DNA from: Calothrix sp. FI2-JRJ7
GTDB lineage: Bacteria; Cyanobacteriota; Cyanobacteriia; Cyanobacteriales; Nostocaceae
DNA: 64,000 nt
Assembly (NCBI GenBank): GCA_019359675.1
Contig: JAHHGX010000002.1
Location: 1 to 64,000 of the forward strand
Direction: 5' to 3'
Part shown: piece after piece, positions 1-64,000 of the stretch
Layout of the letters: each line of letters begins with the position of its first letter
How positions within the stretch are numbered: the first letter of the stretch is position 1
Program-made: the position numbers and the translations under genes
Notes under the pieces: model-generated
The model's input: the letters and a program-made list of their open reading frames with translations, nothing else
Databases searched by the model: none
What the model was told of the DNA's origin: nothing

Positions 1-367
1 CCAAGACTGATTGTCATAAAGCAATACTATTCAGGCGCCTAGCATTATATAACTTGTACCGCTTTGGGTATTGATGGCGCGGCGAAGCCGTGCCGAGACT
101 GATTGTGCCAGTTGCGTAAGTCCTGTTAAAGCTTGCAGATAGTTCGGTACTTACGAACTTACAAAGCTTTTTACAATGGTTTTGTGTGGATGTTTCCGAT
201 AGTTTAGATATGGAAGCAAAGCTATCGGAGCATTGGCAAGACATGTATGGGTTGAATAAAAACTGTACTCGTTACTTTCATCTCGATACCTGGCACTGGC
301 GATTCTAGATTGGGGTTTTGGATTTTCGATTGAGTTTTTGAACTATATTACGTGTACAAAATAAATT
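1..367. other. Intergenic region with gene remnants
   Basis: No convincing gene. Around 114-126 lies TTGCGTAAGTCCTG, the same end sequence as the inverted-repeat element at 2703-2819, so one end of a related element may sit here. A short plus-strand open frame of about 60 codons ends at TAG 306-308 (tail DTWHWRF); it looks protein-like but has no clear start and I do not recognise it. The first 60 bases may belong to a feature left of the window. Confidence 0.35.
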
Positions 368-1228
368 TTGATCGAATCTTTACTGGCGCCTTTTGGTGCA
401 ATAAAAGCACCAACTCGTGTTGCTGCAGAAGTCAAGTTAATAGATATTTTGTTTACTCCTAATGTGCTACAAAACCCAGAGCTTGAACCACTAGGGTTAC
501 TTGGAAAGTTTGCTGAGTTCCCTGCAATAATTGAACCTTTTCGTAACGCTTTGCAAGAAGAGGATATTCCTGATTGTATAATTAGGGTATTAGAAGTTCA
601 AAAAGCATTGCAGCGAGAAGCAAAGCGAAAGAAAACTGTTCTAGAGGAAACCGCAACACCATTTCAATGGATTCTTACACCAACGGTATCATTGGATGTA
701 TTATCCAAATGTAAAGCAGACCCAGACACAAACTGGATGCCCGGAGTGTATTTTACGGCAGAAATATTACGAACAGCAATCGTTGCTATACACGAGTTAC
801 GAAGCGAACCCGAAACTTTGTGGTTAAGGATGTTAGGTCGAGACACAGTACAGAAAAACGCAATTGATGAGTTTATCTCGCTACCAGACAATAACCCTTT
901 CAAGCAAGCGACGCTAGAATGTTTGTACAACTTCAAGCAAAATCTAGAATTCAATAAACCAGAAGATACAGAAGAAACGGAGCTACTTATGAGACTGGCA
1001 CCACTTTATCAACAAGACCGCGAACTTGCCAAGCAAGAAGGAAGAGTCGAAGGAGAACAACGTTTAGTTCTGCGCCTACTTTTTCGTCGTTTTGGTGAGA
1101 TTGACGCATCGATAATTGAACAAGTCAATTCGCTGTCAACAGAGCAATTAGAAGCATTAGGGGAAGCGCTATTAGATTTTTCTGCCTTGAGTGACTTGGA
1201 AGCTTGGTTAAATCAATCACTTCAATAA
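368..1228 (+). CDS. DUF4351-containing cyanobacterial protein, N-terminus probably short
   Basis: Function unknown. The C-terminal 60 residues match my memory of DUF4351 (RLVLRLLFRRFG, then LEALGEALLDFS and LEAWLNQ), a tail often attached to Rpn/PD-(D/E)XK-type proteins that are abundant and mobile in cyanobacteria. The first ~200 residues resemble a cyanobacterial family in which LLGKFAEFPAIIEPFRN and LWLRMLGR are conserved. Relatives as I recall them begin about 15 residues earlier (a segment like RFxHDxFAKDYLEELL). Here the frame is closed upstream by TAA at 362-364 and the first usable start is TTG at 368, so the N-terminus looks clipped and the gene may be a pseudogene. A hairpin follows at 1257-1285. 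Confidence 0.6.
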   Translation: MIESLLAPFGAIKAPTRVAAEVKLIDILFTPNVLQNPELEPLGLLGKFAEFPAIIEPFRNALQEEDIPDCIIRVLEVQKALQREAKRKKTVLEETATPFQWILTPTVSLDVLSKCKADPDTNWMPGVYFTAEILRTAIVAIHELRSEPETLWLRMLGRDTVQKNAIDEFISLPDNNPFKQATLECLYNFKQNLEFNKPEDTEETELLMRLAPLYQQDRELAKQEGRVEGEQRLVLRLLFRRFGEIDASIIEQVNSLSTEQLEALGEALLDFSALSDLEAWLNQSLQ

Positions 1229-1256
1229 AATCAATTCTTTGAAAATTCAAGCATGG

Positions 1257-1285
1257 AAAAGTCGAGAGTAATGTCTCTCGACTTT
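1257..1285 (+). terminator. Hairpin terminator after the DUF4351 gene
   Basis: GTCGAGAG at 1261-1268 pairs perfectly with CTCTCGAC at 1275-1282 around a 6-base loop. It is preceded by AAAA and followed by TTT, so it can act in both directions. A diverged copy follows the DUF4351 tail fragment at 3001-3028. Confidence 0.6.
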
Positions 1286-1335
1286 GCTATTTACCCTACA
1301 TCCCTCAGCGAAAAAATGATAGGTCGGGTAAAGAT

Positions 1336-1689
1336 TCAAAAATCTAACACTATATTTAAGGAAGTGCGTATCAATTCCCAATACTCTTCTTCCAATACTC
1401 CCACTAAATCAAGAACTCGACTATTGTCAAGACCCCGAATTTGTCCAACATCAAGATATCGGTCTTGGTCTAAACCGTTGGTAGGTGTAGCTTTTACATT
1501 TACAACATAGGGTACATTTTTAGTCCCACAGAAGCAATGGTATTACTACGGTTAAAAAACTGTAGCCATTTCCAACATCATTCTGAACTATCAAACAGCA
1601 CGAGTTTTTTTTGCTTCTTTACCTATTGTTGGTTCTAAGTCAACCCAACGTATTTCTCTACGTCGGTAAGTTAAATTACCATTTGCCAT
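1336..1689 (-). pseudogene. MazF/PemK-type toxin, frameshifted
   Basis: Read on the minus strand, ATG at 1689-1687 overlaps the antitoxin stop (TGATG). It gives a MazF-like start (YRRREIRWVDLEPTIGKEAK, then KTRAV), then hits TGA. The homology resumes in another frame (IVQNDVGNGYSFLTVV, ending LLLWD at a stop) and in a third (KNVPYVVNVKATPTNGLDQD, GQIRGLDNSR, WELIRTSLNIVLDF). MazF family proteins are ribosome-independent or ribosome-dependent endoribonucleases of about 110 residues, and the three pieces add up to roughly that. At least two indels are needed, so the toxin should be dead. A plus-strand open frame here (1253-1510) is only its antisense shadow. Confidence 0.75.
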
Positions 1690-1928
1690 CACTCAATACC
1701 ATCACCTACAGTTATATCCCACGCAGCAGCTTCTTTTCGATAAGCTTCGTCTTGTGAATCTTGTATATATGCTGCCTTTAACTCTTCTTGTAAACGTTGC
1801 TTTTTTAATTCTTTGAATACACTATTGATCAAAGCGCTACGGTTTCCTTGATTTTCGCTATTTAATGCCAGTTTATCTACAAAAGCGAGAACATCGTCAT
1901 CAAGGGTTATTGTAACTTTTTTAACCAT
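1689..1928 (-). CDS. Ribbon-helix-helix antitoxin (MazE/CopG-like)
   Basis: A 79-residue protein opening with VKKVTITLDDDVLAFVDKLA, the beta strand plus first helix of ribbon-helix-helix antitoxins, with NRSALINSVFKELKKQR as the second helix. The C-terminal 35 residues would wrap the toxin. The stop overlaps the start of the MazF remnant, the normal antitoxin-toxin arrangement. Three TATCATA direct repeats at 1939-1966, just upstream of its start, are a plausible autoregulatory operator. The antitoxin is intact while its toxin is broken, so it may persist as an orphan regulator or as protection against a related toxin elsewhere in the genome. Confidence 0.75.
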   Translation of the reverse strand: MVKKVTITLDDDVLAFVDKLALNSENQGNRSALINSVFKELKKQRLQEELKAAYIQDSQDEAYRKEAAAWDITVGDGIE

Positions 1929-1938
1929 CTTTTTAGAT

Positions 1939-1966
1939 TATCATAATATCATACTAGCCTATCATA
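1939..1966. promoter_or_regulatory. Triple TATCATA repeat in a divergent promoter region
   Basis: TATCATA occurs at 1939-1945, 1947-1953 and 1960-1966, between the divergent starts of the ribbon-helix-helix antitoxin (1928, minus) and the DUF433 gene (2035, plus). Ribbon-helix-helix antitoxins commonly bind short direct repeats over their own promoter. The assignment is inference. A TATAAT box at 1989-1994 may serve the plus-strand pair. Confidence 0.4.
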
Positions 1967-2034
1967 CTGTTGAAAACTGTATTCACCTTATAATTGTTAC
2001 AATCAAGTCAAGCCTCTATAAATACTTGTATTAT

Positions 2035-2361
2035 ATGACTCTCCAAGAACTAGAAAGTCAGATTCTTGCATTACCCGCAACTGAGAAAGCGGCAATTATT
2101 CAAAGACTAACTCAAACTGTTAACATCGGCGCCAGAGGTATTACAAAAACACCAGGTGTCTGTGGTGGAGAAGCTTGTATTGCTGGTACTCGCATTGCTG
2201 TTTGGTTACTTGTGGAAGCGCGTCGTATTGGTATTACTGAAGCTCAACTTTTACAAGATTATCCTCATATTAGTGCTGCCGACTTGGTTAATGCTTGGCT
2301 GTATACTGATGCACATCCTGAAGAAATTGAAACTGCTATCCATGCGAATGAGGTTGCTTAA
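2035..2361 (+). CDS. DUF433 antitoxin
   Basis: About 108 residues. The C-terminal 75 carry the DUF433 signature (TPGVCGGEACIAGTRIAVW, then DYPHISAADLVNAW), a helix-turn-helix-like domain that acts as antitoxin to PIN-like DUF5615 toxins. The N-terminal 35 residues form an amphipathic helix (LQELESQILALPATEKAAII) seen in similar antitoxins. I chose ATG 2035 over the in-frame TTG at 2026. Its TAA is followed directly by the ATG of the partner at 2362, so the two are translationally linked. Confidence 0.8.
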   Translation: MTLQELESQILALPATEKAAIIQRLTQTVNIGARGITKTPGVCGGEACIAGTRIAVWLLVEARRIGITEAQLLQDYPHISAADLVNAWLYTDAHPEEIETAIHANEVA

Positions 2362-2700
2362 ATGGCACGCTTGTACTCAGATGAGCAGTTTCCAAGGGTA
2401 GTTAGCGAACTTTTACGAACGATGGGACATGATGTATTAACTGTTCAAGAAGCTGGGAATGCAAATCTAGGAATTCCAGATAATGAAGTTTTAGTATTTG
2501 CAGTCAGTAATAATAGGGCTGTTATGACTCTTAACCGTCAAGATTTTGTTCAATTACATAGATTGAATCCTAACCATGCAGGTATTATTATTATCACAAA
2601 TGATATGGATAGGTCGAGGATGGCTACTCGAATTAACGAAGCAATAACAGTGTCAGAACCTTTGGCAGGTAAATTAATTCGTGTAGTTCGTCCAAGTTAA
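2362..2700 (+). CDS. DUF5615 PIN-like toxin
   Basis: A 112-residue protein beginning ARLYSDEQFPRVVSELLRTM with GHDVLTVQEAG, matching the DUF5615 (Mut7-C-like) family of small PIN-fold nucleases. The conserved acidic positions are Asp7 and Glu8 near the start, Asp29 in GHDV, and the later NRQDF. Family members are presumed RNases held in check by DUF433 partners. It directly abuts the DUF433 gene and no frame break is visible, so unlike the neighbouring MazF module this one looks functional. Confidence 0.8.
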   Translation: MARLYSDEQFPRVVSELLRTMGHDVLTVQEAGNANLGIPDNEVLVFAVSNNRAVMTLNRQDFVQLHRLNPNHAGIIIITNDMDRSRMATRINEAITVSEPLAGKLIRVVRPS

Positions 2701-2702
2701 TC

Positions 2703-2819
2703 AGGACTTACGCATGAAAACCTAGAAACCTGGAATATACGTTGATAGCATGTAATAAAGATGACGATTTGTCTGCGACAATGAATGCGTAGAAACGAGG
2801 TTTATGCAGCGTAAGTCCT
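2703..2819. mobile_element. MITE-like element with ~22-bp inverted repeats
   Basis: The left end, AGGACTTACGCATGAAAACCT (2703-2723), matches the reverse complement of the right end (2798-2819) over most of its length. The element is ~117 bp with no coding capacity. A single similar end is at 114-126. The ends resemble those I associate with cyanobacterial DDE transposons, so it is probably moved by a transposase elsewhere. Target duplication is unclear; TTAAT-like sequence lies on both sides. Confidence 0.5.
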
Positions 2820-2881
2820 ATTAATAATTACATTCGTTTTTTGGGTAAGTTAGATATTAGATAAGCACGAAATTAAAAATT

Positions 2882-2971
2882 CAAGCGCAATTAGAGGCAT
2901 TAGGAGAAGCGTTGTTAGATTTTTCTGCTGTAACTGACTTGGAAGCTTGGTTAAATCAAGAACTCCAATAA
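2882..2971 (+). pseudogene. DUF4351 tail fragment, second copy
   Basis: Twenty-nine codons (QAQLEALGEALLDFSAVTD, then LEAWLNQELQ and stop) repeat the end of the gene at 368-1228 with few changes. The copy continues past the stop into a related hairpin at 3001-3028. Nothing upstream of 2882 matches, so only the 3' end survives. Confidence 0.7.
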
Positions 2972-3422
2972 ATTAAATTTTTTGAAAATTAAGTCATGAA
3001 AAAGTTGAGGGTAATATCTCTCGACTTTGACCAGCAAATACAATTTATAGTACATACTACCTATACAAGAGCGACTAAAAATATTTTATTTTTTCCGTAA
3101 CAGCCAAAGCTCCAGGTGTATTCATAACAAGTTGTTTTAATAAAGCGCGGCGAGACTGAATTTTATATACGGCGCCGTTTTCAAAGCTAGTTTAATATTT
3201 CCACATTATTGCACCTCATAGGGGATGTGTACTGCACATCTCCTTTTTCTTAGTTATGTAACTATATATACTTACAATCTAGACAAACCGGATGTTGTAA
3301 TGCCAAGCTGTAAATATTACTGATAATCAAAACTTGGCAGTATAAAAATGGATTTCATCAATCAAGTTAAGAAAACTACTACAGAGGGTAATATATTAAG
3401 TATCAGGTAAAGCAGAACTGCT
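2972..3422. other. Intergenic region before the GT8 gene
   Basis: It contains the diverged hairpin at 3001-3028 (AAAGTTGAGGG with TCTCTCGACTTT) and one GGCGCC at about 3172. I see no other gene or RNA. The promoter of the glycosyltransferase gene is presumably in the last 150 bases, where AT-rich blocks occur, but no box stands out. Confidence 0.3.
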
Positions 3423-4379
3423 ATGCAAAACTTTTGTGAAAGCTCAGAAGATTGCCCAATCAGTATTATTAGTGGAGCAGATGACAGATTTGCAATGGGG
3501 CTTGCTGTTACCCTCTACTCCGCACTGGCAAATTTAGACCCAGGTAGAGCGGTAGACTTTTACATTATTGATGGGGGTATTAGTAATCAAAATAGGCACA
3601 GACTGACAAGAGTATTGAGCAGTGATCGAATTACTGTGAGGCTAAAATGGCTTAAACCAAACTGTGAGTCACTAGGAGAAGTATGGGTTTCTGAGCAATG
3701 GGGTTTAGCAACTTACTTTCGGTTACTAGCACCAGAGCTTTTGCCAACACAGTTGAACCGTGTGATTTATCTAGACAGCGATCTGGTGGTTGAAGGTAGC
3801 TTGGCAAAGCTTTGGGAAGAAGAATTTGACGACTGCCCTGCGCTTGCTGTTCAAGATTACTGGCTTCCCTACGTCTCAACGACATGGGCACTCCACGAGA
3901 CATATCAGGAACTAGGTCTGCCCCCCGATACTCATTATTGCAACTCGGGTGTGATAGTCATGAACCTCAAACATTGGCGAGAAGAGAACTTAGCTCAGAA
4001 AGCTTTGGAATATGTGCGTAAATATCAGAAGATGGATCAAGAGGGCATCAATGCGGTGATGGCTGGCAAATGGAAACTGCTCGATCCCAGATGGAATGTT
4101 CAGATTTGGAGTGTTGTACGCTCTGTGATCGAGCTACCTTGTAAACCAGCAGATCTTCTTCGGAATGCCTTTATCCTGCATTTCACAGCCCCAATTAAGC
4201 CTTGGCATCCTCTTTACAGGCAAGCTGGTGGCGGAGGACGCTTTGCTCATTACCTTAGACAAAGCAATTGGTTTAGTAACCTTGAATACATGAGATGGTT
4301 TGTTAGTACTAGACTCCCTCAAGTGTTCATATTTCCCTTAGCATGGATTAGGGCAAAATATCCGAAGAGCTTCTTTTAA
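3423..4379 (+). CDS. Glycosyltransferase family 8 protein
   Basis: A 318-residue cytosolic glycosyltransferase of the GT8 (galactosyl/glucosyltransferase, LgtC-like) fold. Visible features are the nucleotide-sugar strand ISIISGADDRFAMGL near residue 14, the metal-binding DSD at 118-120 in VIYLDSDLVV, CNSGVIVMNLKHW around 175, and a C-terminal HFTAPIKPW block that completes the donor site. GT8 enzymes retain anomeric configuration and use UDP-glucose or UDP-galactose to build lipopolysaccharide or glycans; the acceptor here is unknown. The gene stands alone, flanked by repeats and broken ORFs, which suggests an accessory or acquired function. Confidence 0.85.
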   Translation: MQNFCESSEDCPISIISGADDRFAMGLAVTLYSALANLDPGRAVDFYIIDGGISNQNRHRLTRVLSSDRITVRLKWLKPNCESLGEVWVSEQWGLATYFRLLAPELLPTQLNRVIYLDSDLVVEGSLAKLWEEEFDDCPALAVQDYWLPYVSTTWALHETYQELGLPPDTHYCNSGVIVMNLKHWREENLAQKALEYVRKYQKMDQEGINAVMAGKWKLLDPRWNVQIWSVVRSVIELPCKPADLLRNAFILHFTAPIKPWHPLYRQAGGGGRFAHYLRQSNWFSNLEYMRWFVSTRLPQVFIFPLAWIRAKYPKSFF

Positions 4380-4390
4380 CAACTAAACCA

Positions 4391-4812
4391 CTAATTACTA
4401 CTTAGCTTTTGTTTAAGCCAAGTTGCAGCTTTACTTGCTGCTTCTTCTACGACTTCTGGTTGATCATAAAACGCAATGTGATTTTTTGTATTCATCCAAT
4501 AGTCTTGCCAAAAGGGAGCATTAGTTTCACCATCTGACTGGAGACAAAATCCACCTGGTGGAAGAATTGCTTCATGGGTACGTCCACCACTGCGCCAGCC
4601 AAAACGTACTGCCCACCTAGATTTATAATTAGTCGATGTCCTTCAATATAGTGTTCTGGAAGTTCTACTGGCTTGAGTCGTTGTACTTCTAGGGTTAAGT
4701 TTTGGCGCCATCCTGCTTGGAAACTAGAAAGAACAACTGAATTATTTGGAGCAGATGGAAAGCGTTGCCCTGTTTGCGGATTAATTAAATTGATACTACT
4801 ATACAAGGTCAC
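4391..4812 (-). pseudogene. Broken ORF: AraC-type N-terminus joined to an unknown tail
   Basis: From 4812 leftward the frame reads VVLSSFQAGWRQNLTLEVQR and LPEHYIEGHRLIINLGGQ, which resembles the N-terminal sensing part of AraC-family regulators; no helix-turn-helix follows. Around 4620-4600 the sense moves to another frame (GWRSGGRTHEAILPPGGFCL, FWQDYWMNTKNHIAFYDQPE, TWLKQKLSSN) and ends at 4391. The tail is protein-like but I do not recognise it. Either one gene with a frameshift or two unrelated fragments fused by deletion would explain this. The longest continuous frame is 4492-4812. Confidence 0.4.
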
Positions 4813-4878
4813 GACAAAGCCCTTAATTTAAGAATACTCTTAATAAATCCTCTTCTTTTTTATATATAACTAACATTT

Positions 4879-5442
4879 ATGCATTTTTTGATGAGCGCGT
4901 TGGTTTCATCGTTGATACTCGTACAATCGGCGCCTGAATGGACAACTTACTCGCAACCCCGTTTAACTAGTGGAGATAGCACACGCTGCCAAATCGAATC
5001 GTTACAAAATGGAAACCAGGTGTCAATGACTGTAAATACAGGTGCCAGTTCTCAAGGAAGCAAAAAAGATAGTATTAAATGTCGATTTGAGATGTCCGTT
5101 GAAATCGAACCTGTACAAGGCTGGTATGCTCAAAGTATTGAACACACTATCAACGGTGGCATTACCAAGGCGCCTGGTGGTAAAGCATTATTGAACGCAC
5201 GCTCTACATTTGCATCCAAAGAGCTATTAAAAATCAAAGAAACTGAATCAAATCCACTAATCAGCCGTTTTCAAAGTTTCCCTATTACCTCTGTAATATC
5301 CAAGTCAAAACAATGCTCCAACTCGTTTCAGGGTTCAACGCCAAAAATGACCTTTGAACTAGAAGCACAAACTCAAGGTGATGCAAGTGTTTCCTTCGGC
5401 GCCGTTGATATCAATATAGTTTACGCCCAATGTTCATCTTAG
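4879..5442 (+). CDS. Secreted protein of unknown function (possibly DUF4360-like)
   Basis: A 187-residue protein with a short hydrophobic N-terminus (LMSALVSSLILVQSAPEW) that looks like a cleaved signal. The rest is polar, with cysteines in TRCQIE, IKCRFEM, SKQCSNS and the final AQCSS, possibly two disulfides. The CRFEMSVEIEPVQGW stretch and the overall beta-rich layout recall DUF4360 secreted proteins, but I am not sure. It probably ends in the periplasm or outside the cell. It precedes psbA by 200 bases with an intervening hairpin, so it is unlikely to be cotranscribed. Confidence 0.5.
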   Translation: MHFLMSALVSSLILVQSAPEWTTYSQPRLTSGDSTRCQIESLQNGNQVSMTVNTGASSQGSKKDSIKCRFEMSVEIEPVQGWYAQSIEHTINGGITKAPGGKALLNARSTFASKELLKIKETESNPLISRFQSFPITSVISKSKQCSNSFQGSTPKMTFELEAQTQGDASVSFGAVDINIVYAQCSS

Positions 5443-5452
5443 AGTCAGTATT

Positions 5453-5480
5453 AGACGGGCAAGGATGCCCGTTCCACAAG
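5453..5480. repeat. Intergenic hairpin repeat (GGGCAAGGATGCCC family)
   Basis: ACGGGCA and TGCCCGT flank AGGA, followed by TCCAC. Close relatives occur at 10972-10994, 25004-25025 and 31333-31355, and a different-arm form at 20264-20284. Most lie just after stop codons, so they may double as terminators. Confidence 0.55.
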
Positions 5481-5553
5481 ACTATTACAAGATAATTACA
5501 AGTTGTATAAGTAACACTGATATATTTGATAACTAATGATAATCACCCATTTC

Positions 5554-6727
<1,174 letters not shown>

Positions 6728-6751
6728 TAAATCTACAACTAAATAAATAAC

Positions 6752-6786
6752 GCAAAAGCGTCTTTAGTGATAAAGGCGCTTTTTGC
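6752..6786 (+). terminator. psbA terminator
   Basis: A long stem: GCAAAAGCG pairs with CGCTTTTTGC, and internally CTTTA pairs with TAAAG around GTGA. The T-run is inside the right arm. Confidence 0.75.
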
Positions 6787-7092
6787 ATGTTTATACGGCG
6801 CCAAATCAGAATACAATTACTCCAAACCATCCGTTTATATCCGTTGCCAGTGGCTTATATCACATTACTGGATATTTTAAATACACTGAAATAACTTTTG
6901 TTTTAATAACTGAGATAAGAAATTAACATCAAAGTTTGTAAACATTTATGTAGATTTATAAACAAACCTGTGTTAACTTTAAGTAGTAGGCGATACATTT
7001 CTATCCCCAGAAACTTGTCCATAAGTTTCTGTCAAAAAAGCTTATAGCTTGAGCTTTTCACCACTAGTAAATTTGTTAAGGGAAATTCTGCT
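6787..7092. other. Upstream region of ocp
   Basis: AT-rich leader with one GGCGCC at about 6798. I saw no gene and no clean HLR1 match. A purine-rich AAGGGAAATT stretch just before the ATG could serve as the ribosome binding site. Confidence 0.3.
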
Positions 7093-8637: not shown

Positions 8638-8803
8638 TATCCGAGACTATTGTTTTGAGTCGCTTTTCATCACATTTGGTGAATAAATTTTTAATTGTGC
8701 TATTTCTAAGTATTATTGCCCTTTCTTTCAAATTGAAATGAGGGTAAGCTCAATAGGATAACTAAAAATATATGCAGAAAAGTTAAAACTCAATAGTTTT
8801 GGA

Positions 8804-55293: not shown

Positions 55294-55429
55294 TTTGCAC
55301 GCTTTTTAACAATGTACCTGATTTCACTGTTAAATTTAACGCTCAACCGAAGGAGTTGCCAAGGATACATATGTATGTTTATAGTAAATAAGCCCTCTTG
55401 GTGCCGGAGAGGAGTTAGGGAAAAATAAA

Positions 55430-55806: not shown

Positions 55807-56117
55807 TGGTTTTTATTGATGGATTTAAGAAACCTGGTTTCTTTTGGTTAAAATTGAAGATTGTTATGCTTAGTGTTTAAGAAACCAGGTTTCTGTGTTT
55901 TATTAAAATAAAGGGCACCTTATTAAGATGCCCTGTTATGCAGGTAAATCCATAATAGGATGTTACCTACACCTTCCCAACAATCAGCAACAGTGACTAA
56001 TTCCACGTTAGCCACATCACAGTCATAGACGTGAATAATAGTAATTTTATTAACGTGTAAACTTATATGACAGTAGTATATACACTGATTTTTTTTGAGG
56101 AAAGGGAAAAGTTACTA
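55807..56117. repeat. Spacer with a paired-palindrome repeat and an ORF remnant
   Basis: AGAAACCTGGTTTCT at 55828-55842 and AGAAACCAGGTTTCT at 55880-55894, 52 bases apart. A hairpin AGGGCA/TGCCCT lies at about 55913-55935. A start-less minus frame (HVYDCDVANVELVTVADCWE, then GVGNILLWIYLHN) may be a further remnant. Confidence 0.5.
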
Positions 56118-57428
56118 TTACGTGTCTAGTTCTTGTTTAGCGTGATTGTAGCGGTAAGATACTCCGGAAACGGCGCCTAGCAACAGCCATGAAAGCGCAT
56201 TGAGTCGCAGGTCAAATAAACTTACGTCTAGTGTATTAAAAATTACCCATGATATGACAATTAGGAAATAGCTGAAGAATATTAGTTTGTCTTGTTCAGA
56301 ACATATTGATTGTTTTAGTACTCGTATACTGGAGATTAAAATCCAGATAATTAAGCTTATAAATAATAGTGTGTTGGGTATTCCTATTTCTGCGGATAGC
56401 ATCAAAAATAAGTTGTGGGGGTGTCCTAGCCAAATGTGCATTTTTTCTTGGTATACGGGGGTAAAGTTTCTTAGTCCCCAACCTGTTAAAGGACGCTGTT
56501 GTGCCATTGACCAGGCAAACTGCCATTGTGTTGTTCGCATTAGTTGAACTGGTCGGTCTGGAAACATTTGGTCGTTTAAACGTGCCCAAAAGAATGCTGG
56601 AACGAAAGTACGAAATATCCCAGCGATAGATGTCGGTGCGAATGCTGCTAAAAGTACACTAACTGTAACGGCGCCAAAAAAACCAACTATAAGGCGCCAT
56701 CCTTTGAAAACTGCATAAGCAACACAAGCTAAAATTGCTATTAACCAAGCATTACGGGAATTAGTTAATATCAATGCGGCAAAATTGAGAAGCACAGCAA
56801 CTGTCAGAAAGAGTAATGAGTGCTGAGTTCTGAGTGCTGAGTACGAAATACCAATATTTTCTTCTATCTTTTCTAACCACAATCCAGATGCGAGAATAAA
56901 AACTATTACCAAATACCCAGCTAGGATATTCGCGTACATAAATACAGAAGACATGCGACCTAGAGGGTTTCCACCAGGTGTAATTGTCCAACCAAATATA
57001 TTAAAGATTAATTCCGGAGTTTTTAAGCCTAAGAACATTTGTCCTAAACCAAGTAATGCAACTGGTATAGAAGTAATTACCATTATCCAAGCAAGGCGCC
57101 GTAGTTGGGCTGTTGTTTGAATTAAAGTATCAAAGGCACAAAATAATAAAATGAAAGGTACAAAATTTGGTAATCCCAGTAGTGCGGGTATTTTTTCCTG
57201 TGCAAAGGCTGTTGTGATAATAAGCACTAAGCTAAAAATGCCAAATCCCTGATTAATAGGGCGCCGTACAATACTTTTGTACTTAAATAACCAAGTAATA
57301 AGTAGTGCCAAGCTTAAGTTAATCACCCCCAATACTGGCATTAGAGGAAAAATCAACACTCCAACTTGGGCGAAATTCCAAGGTAGTTGTAATTTTGAAT
57401 CTGGATGCTGTGAACCGTGTTTAGTCAT
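56118..57428 (-). CDS. O-antigen ligase-like membrane protein (Wzy_C family)
   Basis: 436 residues with about ten to twelve membrane helices and one larger loop near residues 275-345 containing FFWARLNDQMFPDRPVQLMR, RPLTGWGLRNFTPVYQEKMH and LGHPHNLFLMLSAEIGIPNT. The GxGxxxF...HxHN pattern is that of O-antigen ligases and polymerases. It probably transfers or polymerises lipid-linked glycans at the plasma membrane. A five-fold heptamer repeat lies inside the gene at 56811-56845. Alone on this strand; acceptor unknown. Confidence 0.82.
   Translation of the reverse strand: MTKHGSQHPDSKLQLPWNFAQVGVLIFPLMPVLGVINLSLALLITWLFKYKSIVRRPINQGFGIFSLVLIITTAFAQEKIPALLGLPNFVPFILLFCAFDTLIQTTAQLRRLAWIMVITSIPVALLGLGQMFLGLKTPELIFNIFGWTITPGGNPLGRMSSVFMYANILAGYLVIVFILASGLWLEKIEENIGISYSALRTQHSLLFLTVAVLLNFAALILTNSRNAWLIAILACVAYAVFKGWRLIVGFFGAVTVSVLLAAFAPTSIAGIFRTFVPAFFWARLNDQMFPDRPVQLMRTTQWQFAWSMAQQRPLTGWGLRNFTPVYQEKMHIWLGHPHNLFLMLSAEIGIPNTLLFISLIIWILISSIRVLKQSICSEQDKLIFFSYFLIVISWVIFNTLDVSLFDLRLNALSWLLLGAVSGVSYRYNHAKQELDT
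56811..56845. repeat. Heptamer tandem repeat within the ligase gene
   Basis: GAGTAAT, GAGTGCT, GAGTTCT, GAGTGCT, GAGTACG in a row, 35 bases, encoding SALRTQHS-type residues on the minus strand in an extramembrane stretch. It is the same class of heptamer as at 42226-42260. Confidence 0.6.
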
Positions 57429-57535
57429 TTGTCAAAAGTAGTATTGCTAATTGTTTTTGGTCTTTTGCCCGCTCGTCCTGGGTCTAATGACGAAAGACTA
57501 ACGTCAAATGACTAATAACTTTTAAACTTTTAAAC

Positions 57536-57556
57536 TAATGACTAATGACTAATGAC
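57536..57556. repeat. Heptamer tandem repeat (CTAATGA x3)
   Basis: Three perfect heptamers between the YaaW gene and the ligase gene, with degenerate neighbours from 57465 (GACTAACGTCAAATGACTAA). Confidence 0.6.
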
Positions 57557-57563
57557 ATTAAAG

Positions 57564-58427
57564 TCAAGCCGGTTCCCAACATTCTTCGCCACGAGTTAGA
57601 CGAATTTGTGCGATTGTAAAAATCGTGGGGATTATCCGACCGTAATTTGTTGCTATTGCACGCCACCCTAAATCAGCAAGAAACCATGTCCACATCATTG
57701 GACCAATAAAGGCAAACACTGTACGCGCGGCGCCGTATCGTGCTGCATTTATCGCCATTCCTTGACGTGCCATCTGTAAACCCACGTAATTTTGGAATTG
57801 GTCGGCTGCTATTTTTCCTCCTTGAATTGCGGCTTGACGTGCCATTTGATACGCTGCAAAATGCGTAGCAAATTGACGCGCAATTTGTCTGAGCAACAGC
57901 GGTTGCACTACCGAAGTTAAAGCTAACGCGCTACCTCCTTTAAATAGCAGTCCGAGTGGGTCGGGTTGCAATAATAAAGGTAGTGGTTCGTTTGTGGATA
58001 TCGATTTTGCCAGCTGCGCTTGTACTCGCTCGGTTAACTTTTGTTTTTCCGCAGGGGGTAATTTTCGCCAAACGCGCCCTAATAAATGTAGAAAAAGTTC
58101 AGCTTCTAAATCAACTGTCGCCAAATCATCTGAATAAGTTACTTTTAAATACTTACAAACCTGAATTAGGGCTTGTCGGTAGGTAACTTGATTGGTGCGT
58201 CCCCGTAAAACCGTAATACCATCGGCGGCTAAATAGCGAAAGCGTTCTTCTAGCGCCGATAGCCAAGCTTCACGGCTTTGGCTTTGCACTTCGATTGGTT
58301 CGGGTGTCTGTACGTAATCGAGGGGGTTGAATTTACGACTAAACAAGATTGCTGTTAAATCCTTTAATTCATCCTCTGTTGCCAGTTCCAAGGCTTCCCT
58401 CAGTTCATCCAATTTCCCTTCCTCCAA
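57564..58427 (-). CDS. YaaW family protein
   Basis: 287 residues. The N-terminus (DELREALELATEDELKDLTA, ILFSRKFNPLDYV) matches the start of YaaW/UPF0174 proteins. The middle is helical; the C-terminal third has hydrophobic stretches (ALALTSVVQPLLLRQIARQF, VFAFIGPMMWTWFLADLGW) that may contact membrane. No biochemical role is established to my knowledge. It is divergent from the FAD protein gene. Confidence 0.75.
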   Translation of the reverse strand: MEEGKLDELREALELATEDELKDLTAILFSRKFNPLDYVQTPEPIEVQSQSREAWLSALEERFRYLAADGITVLRGRTNQVTYRQALIQVCKYLKVTYSDDLATVDLEAELFLHLLGRVWRKLPPAEKQKLTERVQAQLAKSISTNEPLPLLLQPDPLGLLFKGGSALALTSVVQPLLLRQIARQFATHFAAYQMARQAAIQGGKIAADQFQNYVGLQMARQGMAINAARYGAARTVFAFIGPMMWTWFLADLGWRAIATNYGRIIPTIFTIAQIRLTRGEECWEPA

Positions 58428-58550
58428 ATCGCGCAGCTTGTTCTCTGTTCCCTATTCTACTATCAGCTTTTCGTGGTCAATGGTAATAGTAGTAGCTAAC
58501 AGCTAATTCATTATTGACCACTTATACATTAACCATTTACCACGCTCCCT

Positions 58551-59597
58551 ATGACAGATGTTGTAATAATAGGCGCCGGAATGGCTGGTTTAGTTTGCGC
58601 GCAGCAGTTAACCCAAGCTGGTTATTCGGTGTTAGTAGTTGAAAAATCGCGTGGTTTTGGTGGCAGAGTCGCAACTCGTCGCTTACATAATACTTGTGCT
58701 GACCACGGTGCATGTTACCTCAAGCCCAAAGGTAAATTAATGACTCAGTTCGTTGAGTTATTAATACAACGTAACATTCTTCAAGTTTGGAACGGTACTT
58801 TTATGGAAAAGACACAGAATATTGTGTCTTCGATGCAACCGAGGTATGTAAGTCCTACTGGAATGAGTTCTATAGCTAAGTTTCTGGCACAAGGTTTGGA
58901 TGTAATTCTTGAACAGCGTGTTGTTGAAGTTAATTTTGATGATAATCAATGGTGCCTAACTCTTGAATCAACAACGGCGCCAATAACAGCGAAAGCCTTA
59001 ATTATCGCAATTCCTGCCCCCCAAGCTTTAACCTTACTTGAACCACTCGAAGGTAGTATTCTTAATTCCACATTTATTAACAAACTACGTTCGGTTCAAT
59101 TCTTCCCAAGTATCACCGTCATGGCTGGCTATCCAGCTACGTCAACACCAGTTCCTCAATGGAAAGCCATAACATTTGATAATGATAATACCCTAGGATG
59201 GATTGGTTTCGATAGCACTAAACGTCTTAACCCCTCACAACCTGTTTTCGTAGTTCAAAGTAGCGCTGATTTTGCCGCACAAAATTTAGAGGCTCAAGAT
59301 TTACAGCCTGTAGGACAACAGATGTTACGTACTGTCTCCAACTCGGTCGGATTTGACTGGCTTGCATCGCCTGATTGGTTACAAGTTCATCGTTGGCGTT
59401 ATGCTTTTCCTAGCACTCCCTTACAAGAAACTTTTTTAACTGCCGAAACTTTACAACCCTTAGTGTGCTGCGGTGATTGGTGTGGAGGTAACTTAATTTC
59501 AGGCGCCATTTATTCTGGACTCAGCGCAGCAAGTGCTGTAAACTCTCAACTTCAACCCAATACCACCCTCAAAGATTTGAACTTCATACAATTGTAG
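58551..59597 (+). CDS. FAD-dependent amine-oxidase/renalase-like protein
   Basis: 348 residues. The Rossmann FAD motif is at the very start (DVVIIGAGMAGLVCAQQLTQ), with VVEKSRGFGGRVATRR as the second FAD-contacting loop and DHGACYLK after it. A C-terminal CCGDWCGGNLISGAIYSGLS closes the FAD site. The RxxGGRVATRR and GACYL features are those of renalase-like NAD(P)-dependent oxidoreductases. The substrate is unknown. Cytosolic, monocistronic; a dispersed GTTGGGTTACACC repeat follows. Confidence 0.82.
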   Translation: MTDVVIIGAGMAGLVCAQQLTQAGYSVLVVEKSRGFGGRVATRRLHNTCADHGACYLKPKGKLMTQFVELLIQRNILQVWNGTFMEKTQNIVSSMQPRYVSPTGMSSIAKFLAQGLDVILEQRVVEVNFDDNQWCLTLESTTAPITAKALIIAIPAPQALTLLEPLEGSILNSTFINKLRSVQFFPSITVMAGYPATSTPVPQWKAITFDNDNTLGWIGFDSTKRLNPSQPVFVVQSSADFAAQNLEAQDLQPVGQQMLRTVSNSVGFDWLASPDWLQVHRWRYAFPSTPLQETFLTAETLQPLVCCGDWCGGNLISGAIYSGLSAASAVNSQLQPNTTLKDLNFIQL

Positions 59598-60222
59598 GTT
59601 GGGTGCAGCGGCAGCGTAACCCAACATCAACATTATTAATGTTATCAATGTTGGGTTACACCTACGTACCTCTTAAGTATATATACTTAGTATTCAAATA
59701 ATCTTAAGAAATAATTAAAAAAATTTATTACACTACCTATCCTAAAAATTGTTTCATAGAATAGATGAGTCGTAAGTTTTGATACCAACTACTTAATTAC
59801 ACTTATTTGTATATTTACTATACAACAATCTTTTTGCCAGATAATTTGTATTAATTGATACATGTTAGTAAAAATACAGCAATTAGAGCTAGTAACTGTA
59901 ATTGGTAAGTGGAGAAGGTAATTCTTAATAATATATTCATTATTAAAGAATGGCGCCCAAAATGTTCACAATGAGTTTTGTGTATTTTTTGCGCGAAAAG
60001 TCAGAAAATCTAAATAATTAAGATAAGGATGCTTACTAAATTTGGATGTCGGCAGACTTATGTTGATTAGTAAAAATTTGTTTACTAAAGATGAACTTTT
60101 GTTTAAGAAGCAAAATATAACTCAAGTAGTTTGATAAATTGAAAAACTCACTTGATCAAAATTTGTTTGCTTACAACAACTGTAAACTTAGTCATGTTTC
60201 AATTAATCAAGGAAGTATAGAT
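59598..60222. other. Long AT-rich spacer
   Basis: An inverted dispersed repeat occupies 59594-59668 (TAGGTTGGGTGCAGC and GTTGGGTTACACCTACG). One GGCGCC is at about 59952. A frame open from TTG 60139 runs into the next gene. Otherwise I see nothing. Confidence 0.35.
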
Positions 60223-60570
60223 ATGGAAACTGCTGTTAAATTAACATTGCAATCAGTTGTTGGAGAAATACAAAAGGTTTTAGATACATATTCTTACACT
60301 CCTTATCAACAAGTATTTGCAATTCCTGACATAAATCAAGACTTAATAGATTATGTAGCGGCGCAGATTCCTTGCTTAGATAGCGATTTTGATACAGCGT
60401 GTGGAATCAATTATAAGTTACCACGTAACCCTTTGCAAGCAAAGTTGCACGTGCAAAGTATAATTCACCAAGGAATTTGTTCGATTATGGAACAAAAATC
60501 TGAATGGATTAGCAGATTGTTTAATGACACAGTTCAACCAAATTGCGAACCTTCACACTGGTTTGGATAA
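60223..60570 (+). CDS. Conserved hypothetical protein
   Basis: About 115 residues from ATG 60223, supported by AAGGAAG eight bases before it; the frame is open back to 60139. Helical (TAVKLTLQSVVGEIQKVLDT, DINQDLIDYVAAQIP), with two conserved-looking cysteines and the end NCEPSHWFG. I do not recognise it. A GTAGAGACGTTACATGTAACG palindrome at 60573-60600 follows as a probable terminator. Confidence 0.55.
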   Translation: METAVKLTLQSVVGEIQKVLDTYSYTPYQQVFAIPDINQDLIDYVAAQIPCLDSDFDTACGINYKLPRNPLQAKLHVQSIIHQGICSIMEQKSEWISRLFNDTVQPNCEPSHWFG

Positions 60571-60572
60571 TT

Positions 60573-60600
60573 GTAGAGACGTTACATGTAACGTCTCTAC
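60573..60600. terminator. Palindromic terminator repeat
   Basis: GTAGAGACGTTACA and its complement form an almost perfect 28-base palindrome directly after the stop at 60570. It shares its arms with the palindrome at 29711-29738. Confidence 0.55.
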
Positions 60601-60708
60601 ATAATATTTATCGCGTTTCCCGGTCTAGCGAAGTACGTTTTTAAAGTTGCTTATTCTGGTAGTAAAGAATTAGATGTACCTCATTTGCTTAGGAAACGCT
60701 ATATCAAT

Positions 60709-61041
60709 TTATTTACTTGCGTCATATCCCCAATTTTTGAGGGAATAATACCAGCGGGTGTGTTCAATATCACCCTCTGGTTTTTGTGCTGAGTGACGAT
60801 GAATATAGCTCACTACTTTTTTCATGTGGGCAAAATCTTCTTCTGAATATTCATCTTCGTCTTTTTGCAGTAACTCAATAATATACTTTCCAGATTGATG
60901 CCCAACTGATTCGTCTTCCCCGTCTTTCGTCATCCCTACGGATTTTGATTTTTCCGTATCTAACCATGACTCCAATTCTTTTGGTTTCATGTTTACTGAC
61001 GTGCGGAATTCTTCTATTACAGATTTTACTTCTTTAGTCAT
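60709..61041 (-). CDS. DUF3140 family protein
   Basis: A 110-residue soluble helical protein: VIEEFRTSVNMKPKELESWL, DTEKSKSVGMTKDGEDESVG, HQSGKYIIELLQKDEDEYSE and SYIHRHSAQKPEGD. This matches DUF3140, a family that usually travels with DUF2945 genes as here. Role unknown, possibly stress related. The DUF2945 gene ends 15 bases upstream, so the two form an operon. Confidence 0.8.
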   Translation of the reverse strand: MTKEVKSVIEEFRTSVNMKPKELESWLDTEKSKSVGMTKDGEDESVGHQSGKYIIELLQKDEDEYSEEDFAHMKKVVSYIHRHSAQKPEGDIEHTRWYYSLKNWGYDASK

Positions 61042-61056
61042 AGTTTTTATTGGTGT

Positions 61057-61326
61057 TTAATCTACTTTTTCAAGTGAATCTGGTTTGTGTGCTGCAACAT
61101 CACCACTTTTGTCACTTTTAACTAAATACTGAGGATTATCCTTAGAAGCTGCTACGTGATGTCCTTTTATATCTGTGGGTGAGGTGAGTTTTTCTTCGAC
61201 TTCTCCTACGGTTTCTCCACGTGAAGTCTTCCATTTAACTCTGTCACCTGCTTTTAATTCTTCAGACACGGGTTTCGTCCTTTTACTTTCTACTTTATAT
61301 ACCCGCTTATTATGTTTGCTACCCAA
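61057..61326 (-). CDS. DUF2945 (HVA1 Tudor-like) protein
   Basis: 89 residues, Lys/Glu-rich. The conserved core is ELKAGDRVKWKTSRGETVGE, then IKGHHVAASKDNPQYLVKSD and the ending HKPDSLEKV, typical of the DUF2945 or hypervirulence-associated Tudor domain, a small SH3-like barrel. First gene of the DUF2945-DUF3140 operon. Confidence 0.82.
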   Translation of the reverse strand: MGSKHNKRVYKVESKRTKPVSEELKAGDRVKWKTSRGETVGEVEEKLTSPTDIKGHHVAASKDNPQYLVKSDKSGDVAAHKPDSLEKVD

Positions 61327-61459
61327 ACCTGATTAATCAGTCTTGGGTATAAATTATTTTATCTATCTGCTTGGGGATATTTACGAAAATAAATTTGCAC
61401 CTACGCAGTAAAATAAAGATTTGTTAATAAAACTTAAAAGGTAACGCGCGACTTCATAT

Positions 61460-61981
61460 ATGAATATCCAACCGGAATTTCTCCAATATACTCAGTGGTC
61501 GGGAATTGCGACTTTAGCTTTAGCCGCTATCGCAATTTTAGCTTTTGTTTTTAAATGGGGTATTCGCTTTCGACTTGTGGGTACAACCGGGTTTATGTTA
61601 GTTGTTACAGGAGGTTTGTTTGCCTTATCACTGGCGCCACTAACACGAACAGTAATTCCCGGCGCCGTTCGCTACAACTTAGTCTACGACAATGGAGCGA
61701 CGCAAACCGTAATTTCACTTAAGAACGATATCACCCAAACCCAACTCGATGCCACTCTTCGCCAAGCTGCAAGTGATTTGTACTCCTCTGGGCGCCTCGG
61801 TGCTGGTACTAATAATCTCATGTTAATCCGCGCACGTACTGTAATTCATCCAGAACCAGGTGTTTCAATACCTTTGTACATTGGACAAGCCAAACGCTCT
61901 TTGGCTAGTCGCGATGACTCAAGCATGGCAGTTGAAATTTTTGAAGATAAATTTGCTTTATTAGCAAAACCAACAGCATAA
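61460..61981 (+). CDS. ycf51: Ycf51 (DUF2518) family protein
   Basis: 173 residues, conserved in cyanobacteria and some plastid genomes. Two membrane helices (SGIATLALAAIAILAFVF and GTTGFMLVVTGGLFALSLAP) anchor a soluble domain (VRYNLVYDNGATQTVISLKN, LGAGTNNLMLIRARTVIHPE). Probably in the thylakoid or plasma membrane. Function unknown. ATG 61460 is the natural start. Confidence 0.85.
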   Translation: MNIQPEFLQYTQWSGIATLALAAIAILAFVFKWGIRFRLVGTTGFMLVVTGGLFALSLAPLTRTVIPGAVRYNLVYDNGATQTVISLKNDITQTQLDATLRQAASDLYSSGRLGAGTNNLMLIRARTVIHPEPGVSIPLYIGQAKRSLASRDDSSMAVEIFEDKFALLAKPTA

Positions 61982-62203
61982 GCAACGGATGCAACGGATG
62001 TAACGGATGCATAAGTTATCCGTTCTTTCCGTTGCCAATTTGTGTTTCCCGATACAATTCTTATTATTTTGCAATAAAATATTACTTGAAGGTAGTTTAA
62101 GTATAACTTAATGCATATGTATTAACAAATTGGAAGCTGATACTTATAGTTAAGAACTGTATCAAAAAGTATGCAGAAATGTTACTGTTAGTTAATTAGT
62201 TAT
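61982..62203. other. Spacer with ACGGATG tandem repeat
   Basis: CAACGGATG, CAACGGATG, TAACGGATG in tandem at 61983-62009, then an inverted GTTATCCGTTC. The same motif occurs at 20346-20380 and 49743. No gene. Confidence 0.5.
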
Positions 62204-63385
62204 ATGCCTAATAAATTTTTAACCGAAAAGTTGTCTACTCAAACTTCTAGTTCGTTATCTTTCCTTGCAGTTGCCCCTGCGAAGATAATTCGCGGTACCC
62301 AAGTGTTGGCAGCTGCTGTTGATGATATTGCCCGTTTGGGTAAGCGTCCTTTGATTATTGGTGGTAAAACGCTGACTGCAATTGAAGGTTTTCTGAAGCC
62401 TGTTTTAAATGCTTCTTCGTTGCAATGCTCATGTGCTTGTTACACTCCTGATTGTAGTGAAGCTAGTTTGCTTTCTTTACGTGCAGAAGCCAAAAAGCAT
62501 TCTTGTGATGTGATTATTGGCGTAGGTGGTGGTAAAGCACTAGATACAGCGAAGCTTATTGCTTATCAGTTAGATGTGCCTGTAGTGACAGTTCCAACTT
62601 CGGCGGCAACTTGTGCTGGATGGACTGCTTTATCAAACGTCTATTCGGATGAGGGAGCATTTCTTTACGATGTTGGGTTAGCGCACTGTCCTGATTTGGT
62701 TATTTTAGATTACGATTTGGTGCAAACGGCGCCAACTCGGACTTTAGTGGCAGGAATTGGCGATGCTTTAGCTAAGTGGTATGAAGCTTCGGTTAGTAGT
62801 GGGCACTCTGAGCAAACTATGATTATTGCTGCCGTTCAGCAAGCACGTGTATTACGCGATATTCTCTTCCAAAAATCCTCACAAGCCCTAAAAGAACCTG
62901 GTGGTGATGCTTGGCGCGAAGTTGTTGATGCTTCTGTTCTCATGGCAGGGGTAATTGGTGGTTTGGGTGGCGCCCAATGTCGAACGGTTGCAGCACATGC
63001 AGTTCACAATGGATTAACTCATATTTGCGGGCGCCATAGTATCCACGGTGAGAAAGTAGCTTTTGGAATTTTAGTGCAGTTGCGTTTAGAAGAGATGGTT
63101 CAAGGTAGCCAACTCGCTTCCTCTGCAAGACAACAGTTGTTAAAGTTCTATGCAGAAATTGGTTTGCCGCGTAATTTGAATGATCTAGGTTTGGGAGATG
63201 TGACTCTGCGACAACTACTTTGTGCCGCAGAAATTGCCCTCGACCCCAAATCAGATATTCATAGATTACCGTTTAAAGTTTCCTCTGAACAGTTGATGGC
63301 AGCAATGGTATCTACGACGGCGCCAATAGATAATACGATGAGTCGCGTTTCGGTGTTGGAAGTGAGTGACGAGGTTGAGCAATGA
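62204..63385 (+). CDS. Iron-containing alcohol dehydrogenase family (GldA-like)
   Basis: 393 residues of the glycerol-dehydrogenase-like group. The NAD site is VIIGVGGGKALDTAKLIAYQ with VVTVPTSAATCAGWTALSNV after it. Metal ligands are the Asp in GDALAKWYEA and two His in AAHAVHNGLTHI and HSIHGEKVAFG. GldA oxidises glycerol, and relatives reduce other small ketones. In this operon, with an aminotransferase overlapping by four bases, the substrate may be an amino-acid-related carbonyl rather than glycerol. Confidence 0.85.
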   Translation: MPNKFLTEKLSTQTSSSLSFLAVAPAKIIRGTQVLAAAVDDIARLGKRPLIIGGKTLTAIEGFLKPVLNASSLQCSCACYTPDCSEASLLSLRAEAKKHSCDVIIGVGGGKALDTAKLIAYQLDVPVVTVPTSAATCAGWTALSNVYSDEGAFLYDVGLAHCPDLVILDYDLVQTAPTRTLVAGIGDALAKWYEASVSSGHSEQTMIIAAVQQARVLRDILFQKSSQALKEPGGDAWREVVDASVLMAGVIGGLGGAQCRTVAAHAVHNGLTHICGRHSIHGEKVAFGILVQLRLEEMVQGSQLASSARQQLLKFYAEIGLPRNLNDLGLGDVTLRQLLCAAEIALDPKSDIHRLPFKVSSEQLMAAMVSTTAPIDNTMSRVSVLEVSDEVEQ

Positions 63386-64000
63386 GTTTAAGTTGGATTA
63401 AGTCCGCAGAACGCATACAAAATTTACCGGCTTATCCGTTTGCCCGGTTAGATGAACTTAAGGCAAACGCACGGCAACAAGGTTTAGATTTGATTGATTT
63501 GGGAATGGGTAATCCCGATGGTAGTACACCTCAACCAGTCATTGATGCTGCGGTGAAAGCGTTGCAGAACCCTGCAAATCACGGTTATCCACCATTTGAA
63601 GGAACTGCTAGTTTTCGAGGTTGTATAACAAATTGGTACTATCGTCGCTATGGTGTAAAGTTAGACTCCGACAGTGAAGCTTTACCTTTACTTGGTTCTA
63701 AAGAAGGTTTGGCACATTTAGCGCTAGCTTATATTAATCCAGGTGATGTTGTCTTAGTGCCTTCGCCATCGTACCCAGTACATTTTCGTGGTCCGTTAAT
63801 TGCTGGGGGAGACGTTTATAGCTTAGTTCTGAAGCCAGAAAATAATTGGTTAATTGATTTAGCGGCAATTCCTGATGAGGTCGCACGTAAAGCTAAAATT
63901 CTTTATTTCAATTATCCTAGTAATCCAACTGCGGCAACTGCTCCGCGTGAATTTTTTGAAGAAATAGTTGCTTTTGCTCGTAAGTATGAAATTCTGCTAG
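63382..64000 (+). CDS. Class I/II aminotransferase, cut by the window end
   Basis: The first 206 codons of a PLP-dependent aminotransferase of the LL-diaminopimelate/aspartate aminotransferase group: AERIQNLPAYPFARLDELKA, DLIDLGMGNPDGSTPQPVID, LLGSKEGLAHLALAYINPGD, PSPSYPVHFRGPLIAGGDVY and LYFNYPSNPTAATA. The PLP lysine lies beyond 64000. The ATG overlaps the stop of the GldA-like gene (ATGA), so they are translated together. Confidence 0.88.
   Translation, partial: MSLSWIKSAERIQNLPAYPFARLDELKANARQQGLDLIDLGMGNPDGSTPQPVIDAAVKALQNPANHGYPPFEGTASFRGCITNWYYRRYGVKLDSDSEALPLLGSKEGLAHLALAYINPGDVVLVPSPSYPVHFRGPLIAGGDVYSLVLKPENNWLIDLAAIPDEVARKAKILYFNYPSNPTAATAPREFFEEIVAFARKYEILL

What the first reader, a model, noticed from the sequence alone, without database searches (positions are those of the whole stretch)
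1..64000. GGCGCC as a highly iterated palindrome in place of HIP1
Reading by eye I count about 97 GGCGCC sites, one per ~660 bases, spread over genes on both strands and intergenic DNA. At an assumed 40% GC, chance gives about four. The classic cyanobacterial palindrome GCGATCGC was not seen at all. Alternative iterated palindromes are known in some cyanobacteria, but I cannot say whether this one is described for this lineage. Flanks look symmetric in many cases (TGGCGCCA, CGGCGCCG, AGGCGCCT).
Basis: partly seen in the sequence, partly recalled or inferred. Interest (0 to 1): 0.7.

Follow-up and report, generated by a model that had tools for sequence, protein, structure and literature searches.

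The report
GGCGCC replaces HIP1 across a genus
A six-letter palindrome, GGCGCC, occurs about once every 580 bases in this cyanobacterium's genome, in place of the palindrome most of its relatives repeat; its whole genus shares it, and the way copies wear out suggests that a leftover restriction-system enzyme methylates its inner C.

Summary
In detail: 98 GGCGCC in the window (chance 3.8) and no GCGATCGC; 14,889 and 31 in the 8.66-Mb genome. In 464 kb it is the most enriched of 4,096 hexamers, 18-20 times expectation.

It is an alternate highly iterated palindrome as Elhai (2015) described for Calothrix PCC 7103, so the phenomenon is known.

New here: (1) all 7 genus genomes searched have it; 42 other family members sampled have at most 530 copies each. 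Elhai judged alternate HIPs sporadic. (2) All 7 carry one vertically inherited cytosine methyltransferase whose relatives often sit beside a HindVP endonuclease; HindVP genomes avoid the site. In the genus none was found beside it. (3) In 295 aligned ancestral sites, inner C-to-T changes are twice expectation and all other changes 0.39 times. This fits methylation at GG(m5C)GCC plus maintenance of the site. (4) G080, a distant genome, may be a weaker parallel.

Caveats: against CpG background the C-to-T excess shrinks to 1.4; intergenic sites show weaker suppression; gains are few. Methylation is inferred; selection versus biased repair is open. Flank symmetry was not supported.

The parts
34..63324. 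98 copies of the palindrome GGCGCC, spread over genes on both strands and intergenic DNA. First bases run from 34, 385, 2128, 3171, 4704 to 62728, 62969, 63030, 63319; the full list is in the output. The methyltransferase genes discussed lie outside the window (own contigs C79 and C38).
   Evidence: Exact count and positions; phases

Best explanation
GGCGCC is an alternate highly iterated palindrome that became established in the ancestor of this genus (Calothrix PCC 7102, 7103, 7716, NIES-4105, HK-06, MAG C42_A2020_038 and this genome). Proposed mechanism: an orphan C5-cytosine methyltransferase, left over from a HindVP-type (GRCGYC) restriction-modification system whose endonuclease was lost, methylates the inner cytosine on both strands, GG(m5C)GCC. 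With the endonuclease gone and HIP1 driven out by GATC avoidance, the methylated hexamer took over the role of HIP1 and went from avoided to most abundant. Each site is kept by a weak per-site advantage or by a repair bias of equal effect, and is lost chiefly by deamination of the methylated C. Shown: genus-wide abundance; near-absence of HIP1 in the five genus genomes sampled at 180-200 kb; one vertically inherited methyltransferase with no endonuclease found beside it; suppression of changes limited to the hexamer; excess of inner C-to-T. Inferred: methylation itself, the exact target, the order of events, the role, and selection versus repair bias.
For: 7 of 7 genus genomes have 7,475-20,380 copies. 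HIP1 0, 0, 0, 3, 0 in 180-200 kb each of own, PCC 7102, PCC 7716, PCC 7103, NIES-4105. The C79 methyltransferase and its six genus relatives form one clade, SH-aLRT 99, quick tree without bootstrap, in a conserved neighbourhood in five of the six relatives. 14 of 25 non-genus relatives have a clustered ORF upstream, HindVP in 4 of 4 tested. All 32 of 386 genomes with HindVP have at most 160 GGCGCC. GACGTC 5 against 43 and GGCGTC 17.5 against 43 expected. At 12% divergence 78 of 93 own sites persist, 84%, against a mean of 49.5% for hexamers, first of 350. Singleton changes at positions 1-6 are 0.22, 0.12, 1.44, 1.08, 0.29, 0.60 of expectation, flanks 0.85-1.63. Pooled over two regions: inner C-to-T 92 against 45.4, other changes 49 against 126.6; GC-only control words 177 against 198.9. 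At the inner pair 92 of 96 changes are C-to-T.
Against: No methylation data. Against a CpG background the region-1 excess of C-to-T is about 67 against 47 (my sum; both include CpGs at site edges), and at codon third positions only 0.214 against 0.194. Outside ORFs suppression of other changes is weak, 13 against 19.3, and absent at the outermost position, 7 against 6.3. Region 2 alone gives 18 against 30.9. Summed over all changes GGCGCC ranks only about 85th of 640 words for constancy, and own-to-PCC 7103 conservation only about 303rd of 1,414. Gains: 7 against 1.53 by a loose rule, but strict listing gives 4 single-step cases, one of them already GGCGCC in the outgroup. Eight of ten genomes with the methyltransferase and no HindVP lack the HIP. 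The endonuclease scrap near the gene in MAG C42 fell below the BLAST threshold.
Confidence: 0.7

Rival explanations
1. Elhai's ratchet in full: a mismatch repair directed by G(m5C) keeps mutations that create GmeC sites, so GGCGCC accumulated as a by-product, with no function of the sequence itself, up to about one site per kilobase.
For: The base his scheme needs methylated, the inner C, is the one with the C-to-T excess. Density is near one per 600 bases. Close pairs under 100 bp are fewer than random, 165 against about 241 over six sets.
Against: The suppression stops at the hexamer edges, whereas repair that works over about a kilobase should protect neighbours alike. Spacing is otherwise near random, coefficient of variation 0.86-1.03. 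His suggested need for a second methyltransferase copy is not met in PCC 7102, which has one. Strict gains are few.
Confidence: 0.3
2. Another of the genome's methyltransferases, not the C79 gene, methylates and maintains GGCGCC.
For: Own genome has nine PF00145 matches, some fragments; only the C79/C38 family was followed across genomes. Amino-methyltransferases were not searched for.
Against: The C79 gene is in all 7 genus genomes, its family is tied to HindVP, and G080, GGCGCC-rich, has a member while its congener G014 has none.
Confidence: 0.12
3. A relic: GGCGCC rose once in the ancestor and now only decays.
For: In region 1, 62 three-of-four losses against 17 one-of-four patterns, few of them clean gains.
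Against: Changes other than inner C-to-T are 0.39 of expectation; exchange with NIES-4105 is balanced, 15 own-only and 14 NIES-4105-only.
Confidence: 0.1
4. A by-product of codon or amino-acid use, such as Gly-Ala pairs written GGC GCC.
For: 117 of 192 coding ancestral sites are in that frame.
Against: Sites occur in all phases, both strands and outside ORFs; other GC-only words show neither the excess nor the suppression; 42 family members lack it.
Confidence: 0.02

Closest known systems
GGCGCC alternate HIP of Calothrix PCC 7103 and D253 (Elhai 2015, PMC4390886)
   Same: Same hexamer, same genus, HIP1 nearly absent, related cytosine methyltransferase present, similar density.
   Different: Here shown as a trait of the whole genus (7 of 7), with one shared orphan gene, a substitution spectrum pointing to the inner C, and no need for a second copy.
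HIP1, GCGATCGC
   Same: GC-rich palindrome near one per kilobase with cognate orphan methyltransferases (Elhai 2015).
   Different: Different sequence; GATC is avoided here (155 against 1,070 expected) and HIP1 has 31 copies in 8.66 Mb.
HindVP-type restriction-modification system (PF09519 with an m5C methyltransferase)
   Same: The methyltransferase is up to 72% identical to non-genus relatives, 14 of 25 of which have the upstream HindVP-type ORF.
   Different: No HindVP in this genome and the target is abundant, not avoided. GRCGYC as the HindVP target is recalled; Elhai assigns GrCGyC to the PCC 7103 enzymes.

Membership tests
Highly iterated palindromes (HIP class, Elhai 2015) | GC-rich palindrome, extreme outlier in observed/expected | tested here: met
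   762 against 42.6, first of 4,096 hexamers
Highly iterated palindromes (HIP class, Elhai 2015) | Roughly 1,000-2,000 copies per Mb, spread genome-wide | tested here: met
   1,719 per Mb; 0.9-2.4 per kb in 21 stretches
Highly iterated palindromes (HIP class, Elhai 2015) | Alternate HIPs occur only where HIP1 is low | tested here: met
   31 HIP1 in the genome; 0-3 in 180-200 kb of five genus genomes
Highly iterated palindromes (HIP class, Elhai 2015) | A methyltransferase able to modify the sequence is present | tested here: inconclusive
   Candidate genes on C79 and C38; specificity and activity not testable here
HindVP (GRCGYC) restriction-modification system | m5C methyltransferase of the HindVP-associated family | tested here: met
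HindVP (GRCGYC) restriction-modification system | HindVP endonuclease (PF09519) | tested here: not met
   0 matches in G000, up to 5 candidates scored; none by tblastn in the fetched loci L014-L019 of the six relatives; the six were not searched genome-wide
HindVP (GRCGYC) restriction-modification system | Inner C of GRCGYC methylated | not testable with these tools
   Only indirect: C-to-T excess at that base

The most novel reading that the evidence does not exclude
When a restriction-modification system loses its endonuclease in a lineage that has lost HIP1, the stranded methyltransferase's target can flip from avoided to the commonest hexamer of the genome and then be kept site by site through the radiation of a genus; this happened here and, independently and more weakly, in G080.
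Probability: 0.45. Interest if true: 0.7.

Novelty: new member of a known kind. Interest (0 to 1): 0.5.

Why it matters
What HIP1 does is a long-standing question. A genus in which another palindrome with one candidate enzyme has taken its place is a natural experiment: seven sequenced species, a nameable gene and a measurable balance of gain and loss. It weakens one of two arguments that Elhai gave for a HIP1-specific function (that alternates do not persist in clades) and offers indirect evidence for the methylated position that his model required.

Tried and rejected
The maximal-order Markov expectation (49) was rejected as circular. The reversed word CCGCGG is a poor control: an Eco29kI-type endonuclease (PF09517) and an m5C methyltransferase sit together on C61 and probably explain its 8 copies (the CCGCGG target is recalled). 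G229 (2,493 copies) looked like another case, but a 27-kb sample has 8 against 6.8 expected and it has no such methyltransferase. G374, G053, G334 and G300 were also sampled (10-52 kb) and show no excess. The 20-kb anchors L110 and L096 were poorly syntenic and enter no count. Rfam on the window: 0 matches at gathering threshold. HIP1 in the eight other genomes with the methyltransferase and no HindVP could not be sampled as planned; G300 alone had 20 HIP1 in 40 kb. Instead, the 11 of 25 non-genus loci without the upstream ORF were read: 1-12 HIP1 each and no GGCGCC. Literature; in the held library only PMC4390886 holds GGCGCC together with HIP1 or with Calothrix. Its supplements were not read, and most subscription papers are not held.

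In mending it I corrected several malformed fields, added results against my reading (CpG background, intergenic sites, word ranks, strict gains, the 5-candidate limit, G080's composition) and lowered the probability of the novel case from 0.5 to 0.45 for the G080 composition caveat.
Full report
1. Observation. The window holds 98 GGCGCC, with 3.8 expected by composition and 5.9 by a first-order Markov model, and no GCGATCGC. The genome (8.66 Mb, 91 contigs) holds 14,889 GGCGCC and 31 GCGATCGC. Over 464 kb of own sequence GGCGCC is the most enriched of 4,096 hexamers, 762 observed and 42.6 expected, at 0.9-2.4 per kb in all 21 stretches. GATC (155 observed, 1,070 expected) and GGCC (98 observed, 878 expected) are strongly avoided; avoidance of GATC alone would remove HIP1. 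Symmetric flanks are 228 of 762, about what marginal flank frequencies give (215, my arithmetic). The unit is the hexamer.

2. Who has it. In a phylum sample of 386 genomes, 42 others of the same family have at most 530 copies each. In the genus search 7 of 7 genomes have 7,475-20,380, that is 1,150-1,720 per Mb with rounded genome sizes. A search of named genomes with the two own methyltransferases found 185 relatives and kept the best 80. GGCGCC was recounted in 28 of those genomes. Six have exactly the counts of the six other genus members: PCC 7102, PCC 7103, PCC 7716, NIES-4105, MAG C42_A2020_038 and HK-06. The other 22 have 1-277. PCC 7102 is filed as Dulcicalothrix desertica. Both of Elhai's GGCGCC strains fit this clade: PCC 7103 directly, and D253 as 94% identical to it in his Table 1 (passage).

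3. The enzyme. The own genome has nine PF00145 matches, some of them fragments. Two are short m5C methyltransferases, on C79 and C38, 61% identical and best matched by one PADLOC model. The C79 copy and its six genus relatives form a clade with SH-aLRT 99 in a quick tree without bootstrap. In five of the six relatives it lies between the same two neighbours, a RuBisCO-like and a GHL10 gene, identified by Pfam in the PCC 7102 locus. PCC 7102 and MAG C42 have one copy at E up to 1e-40, own and PCC 7103 two, and the others more rows, some partial. Of 25 non-genus relatives examined, 14 have a clustered ORF just upstream, which is HindVP (PF09519) in the 4 of 14 tested. No such endonuclease was found by tblastn in the fetched loci of the six genus relatives. 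In MAG C42 a short stretch upstream resembles the endonuclease C-terminus; it was below the BLAST threshold and is suggestive only.

4. Enzyme and site counts. In 386 genomes 41 carry the methyltransferase at E up to 1e-80 and 32 carry HindVP, some in pieces; 31 carry both. At most five candidates were scored per genome in these two calls, so absences are not firm. All 32 HindVP genomes have at most 160 GGCGCC. Ten have the methyltransferase without HindVP: own 14,889, G080 9,489, and eight with 3-277. Loss of the endonuclease is thus compatible with the new HIP but does not bring it about alone. G080 has 54% GC and 123 against 34.7 expected in 61 kb, with HIP1 1; its congener G014 has 343 copies and no such methyltransferase. 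Part of the G080 difference is composition: its reversed-word control is also high, 2,450 against 172-367 in three congeners. G080's gene has no HindVP in its genome.

5. Turnover. Own contig C79 (180 kb) was aligned with PCC 7102, PCC 7716, PCC 7103 (5-6% apart) and NIES-4105 (12%). To NIES-4105, 78 of 93 own sites persist (84%; hexamer mean 49.5%; first of 350 words). To PCC 7102 and PCC 7716 GGCGCC ranks about 6th of 1,380 and 4th of 1,407, but to PCC 7103 only about 303rd of 1,414. Of 62 three-of-four patterns 54 are single-step, 42 of these inner C-to-T; with an outgroup letter, 18 of 22 confirm loss, 1 points to gain and 3 are other. Matched for codon position and base, 215 ancestral sites show 0.22, 0.12, 1.44, 1.08, 0.29 and 0.60 of expected change at positions 1-6, and flanks 0.85-1.63. 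Summed over all changes the word is at 0.70 and only about 85th of 640 words, since C-to-T at the centre offsets the rest.

6. Replication and controls. A second region (own C65) has less four-way cover (44 kb). Alone it gives inner C-to-T 29 against 10.2, other changes 18 against 30.9, gains 0 against 0.40. Pooled (295 sites, 163 kb): 92 against 45.4, 49 against 126.6, gains 7 against 1.53. GC-only control words: loss 177 against 198.9, gain 149 against 264.0 (all). Poisson tails are 3e-15 for suppression and 8e-10 for C-to-T. Against CpG background instead of all C, the region-1 C-to-T count is 67 against about 47 (includes CpGs at site edges), with almost no excess at codon third positions (0.214 against 0.194). 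The ratio of C-to-T to other changes is still 7.8 times that of other CpGs. Outside ORFs the pooled figures are 11 against 4.8 and 13 against 19.3, so suppression there is weak. Gains are soft: a strict listing has four single-step cases, one already GGCGCC in the outgroup. Exchange with NIES-4105 is balanced, 15 own-only and 14 NIES-4105-only.

7. Reading. C-to-T excess limited to the inner C, with other changes of that base suppressed (92 of 96 changes at the inner pair are C-to-T), is what m5C there predicts. Suppression of other changes up to the hexamer edge is what maintenance of the site predicts. In a simple mutation-selection-drift picture an 18-fold excess needs a scaled advantage near 3, with loss factors near 0.2 and gain factors near 3 (my arithmetic). 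The data are in that neighbourhood but do not tell selection from an equally strong repair bias.

8. Relation to the 2015 model. The inner C is the base Elhai's scheme needs. Against his text, the alternate HIP is a clade trait and a second methyltransferase copy is not needed. The sharp hexamer edge does not favour repair acting at a distance. A mild shortage of close pairs (165 against about 241 under 100 bp) is in line with a saturating benefit.

9. Literature. In the held library one paper holds GGCGCC with HIP1 or with Calothrix. I read its abstract, sections 12, 13, 18 (part 1 of 2), 19 and passages; other papers were seen as search listings only. No later report of genus-wide GGCGCC turned up.

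Noticed in passing
L009:1462-3345 and L009:2-1216 (own contig C61): An Eco29kI-type endonuclease (PF09517) with an m5C methyltransferase, beside a gene with pPIWI_RE-associated domains; probably behind the near-absence of CCGCGG (8 copies).
   Followed up: partly
L202-L211 and L279-L288 (PCC 7103): PCC 7103 carries 61 of 141 changes at ancestral GGCGCC sites against 29% of region-1 background singletons (p about 0.0003), and more GATC than its sisters PCC 7102 and PCC 7716 (99 against 59 and 53): the HIP may be loosening in the strain that was studied in 2015.
   Followed up: partly
L212-L221 (NIES-4105): CGCGCG is 9.2 times expected (152 copies in 200 kb), against 3.5-4.8 in four sister genomes: a possible second iterated palindrome.
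   Followed up: no
own 464-kb sample (window, L094-L113): Many words are nearly absent: CCATGG, GAGCTC, GCATGC, GTCGAC, GTGCAC, TGCGCA 0 each; also non-palindromic GAGCCC/GGGCTC 0 and GAGCAC/GTGCTC 2, a pattern like a GDGCHC specificity.
   Followed up: no
window 5645-8052: A psbA-type gene and an orange carotenoid protein gene side by side; the psbA region is 91% identical to plasmid copies of NIES-4105 and PCC 7716.
   Followed up: no
window 11880-18325: A 1,710-aa WD40-repeat protein with an nSTAND1 NTPase domain beside a KAP-like P-loop protein.
   Followed up: no
L019 and L254 (HK-06): A second, shorter copy of the same methyltransferase family lies next to the first on the HK-06 contig.
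   Followed up: no
own sites, 464-kb sample: G before and C after GGCGCC are rare flanks (79 and 81 of 762 by summing), so GGGCGCC is disfavoured.
   Followed up: no
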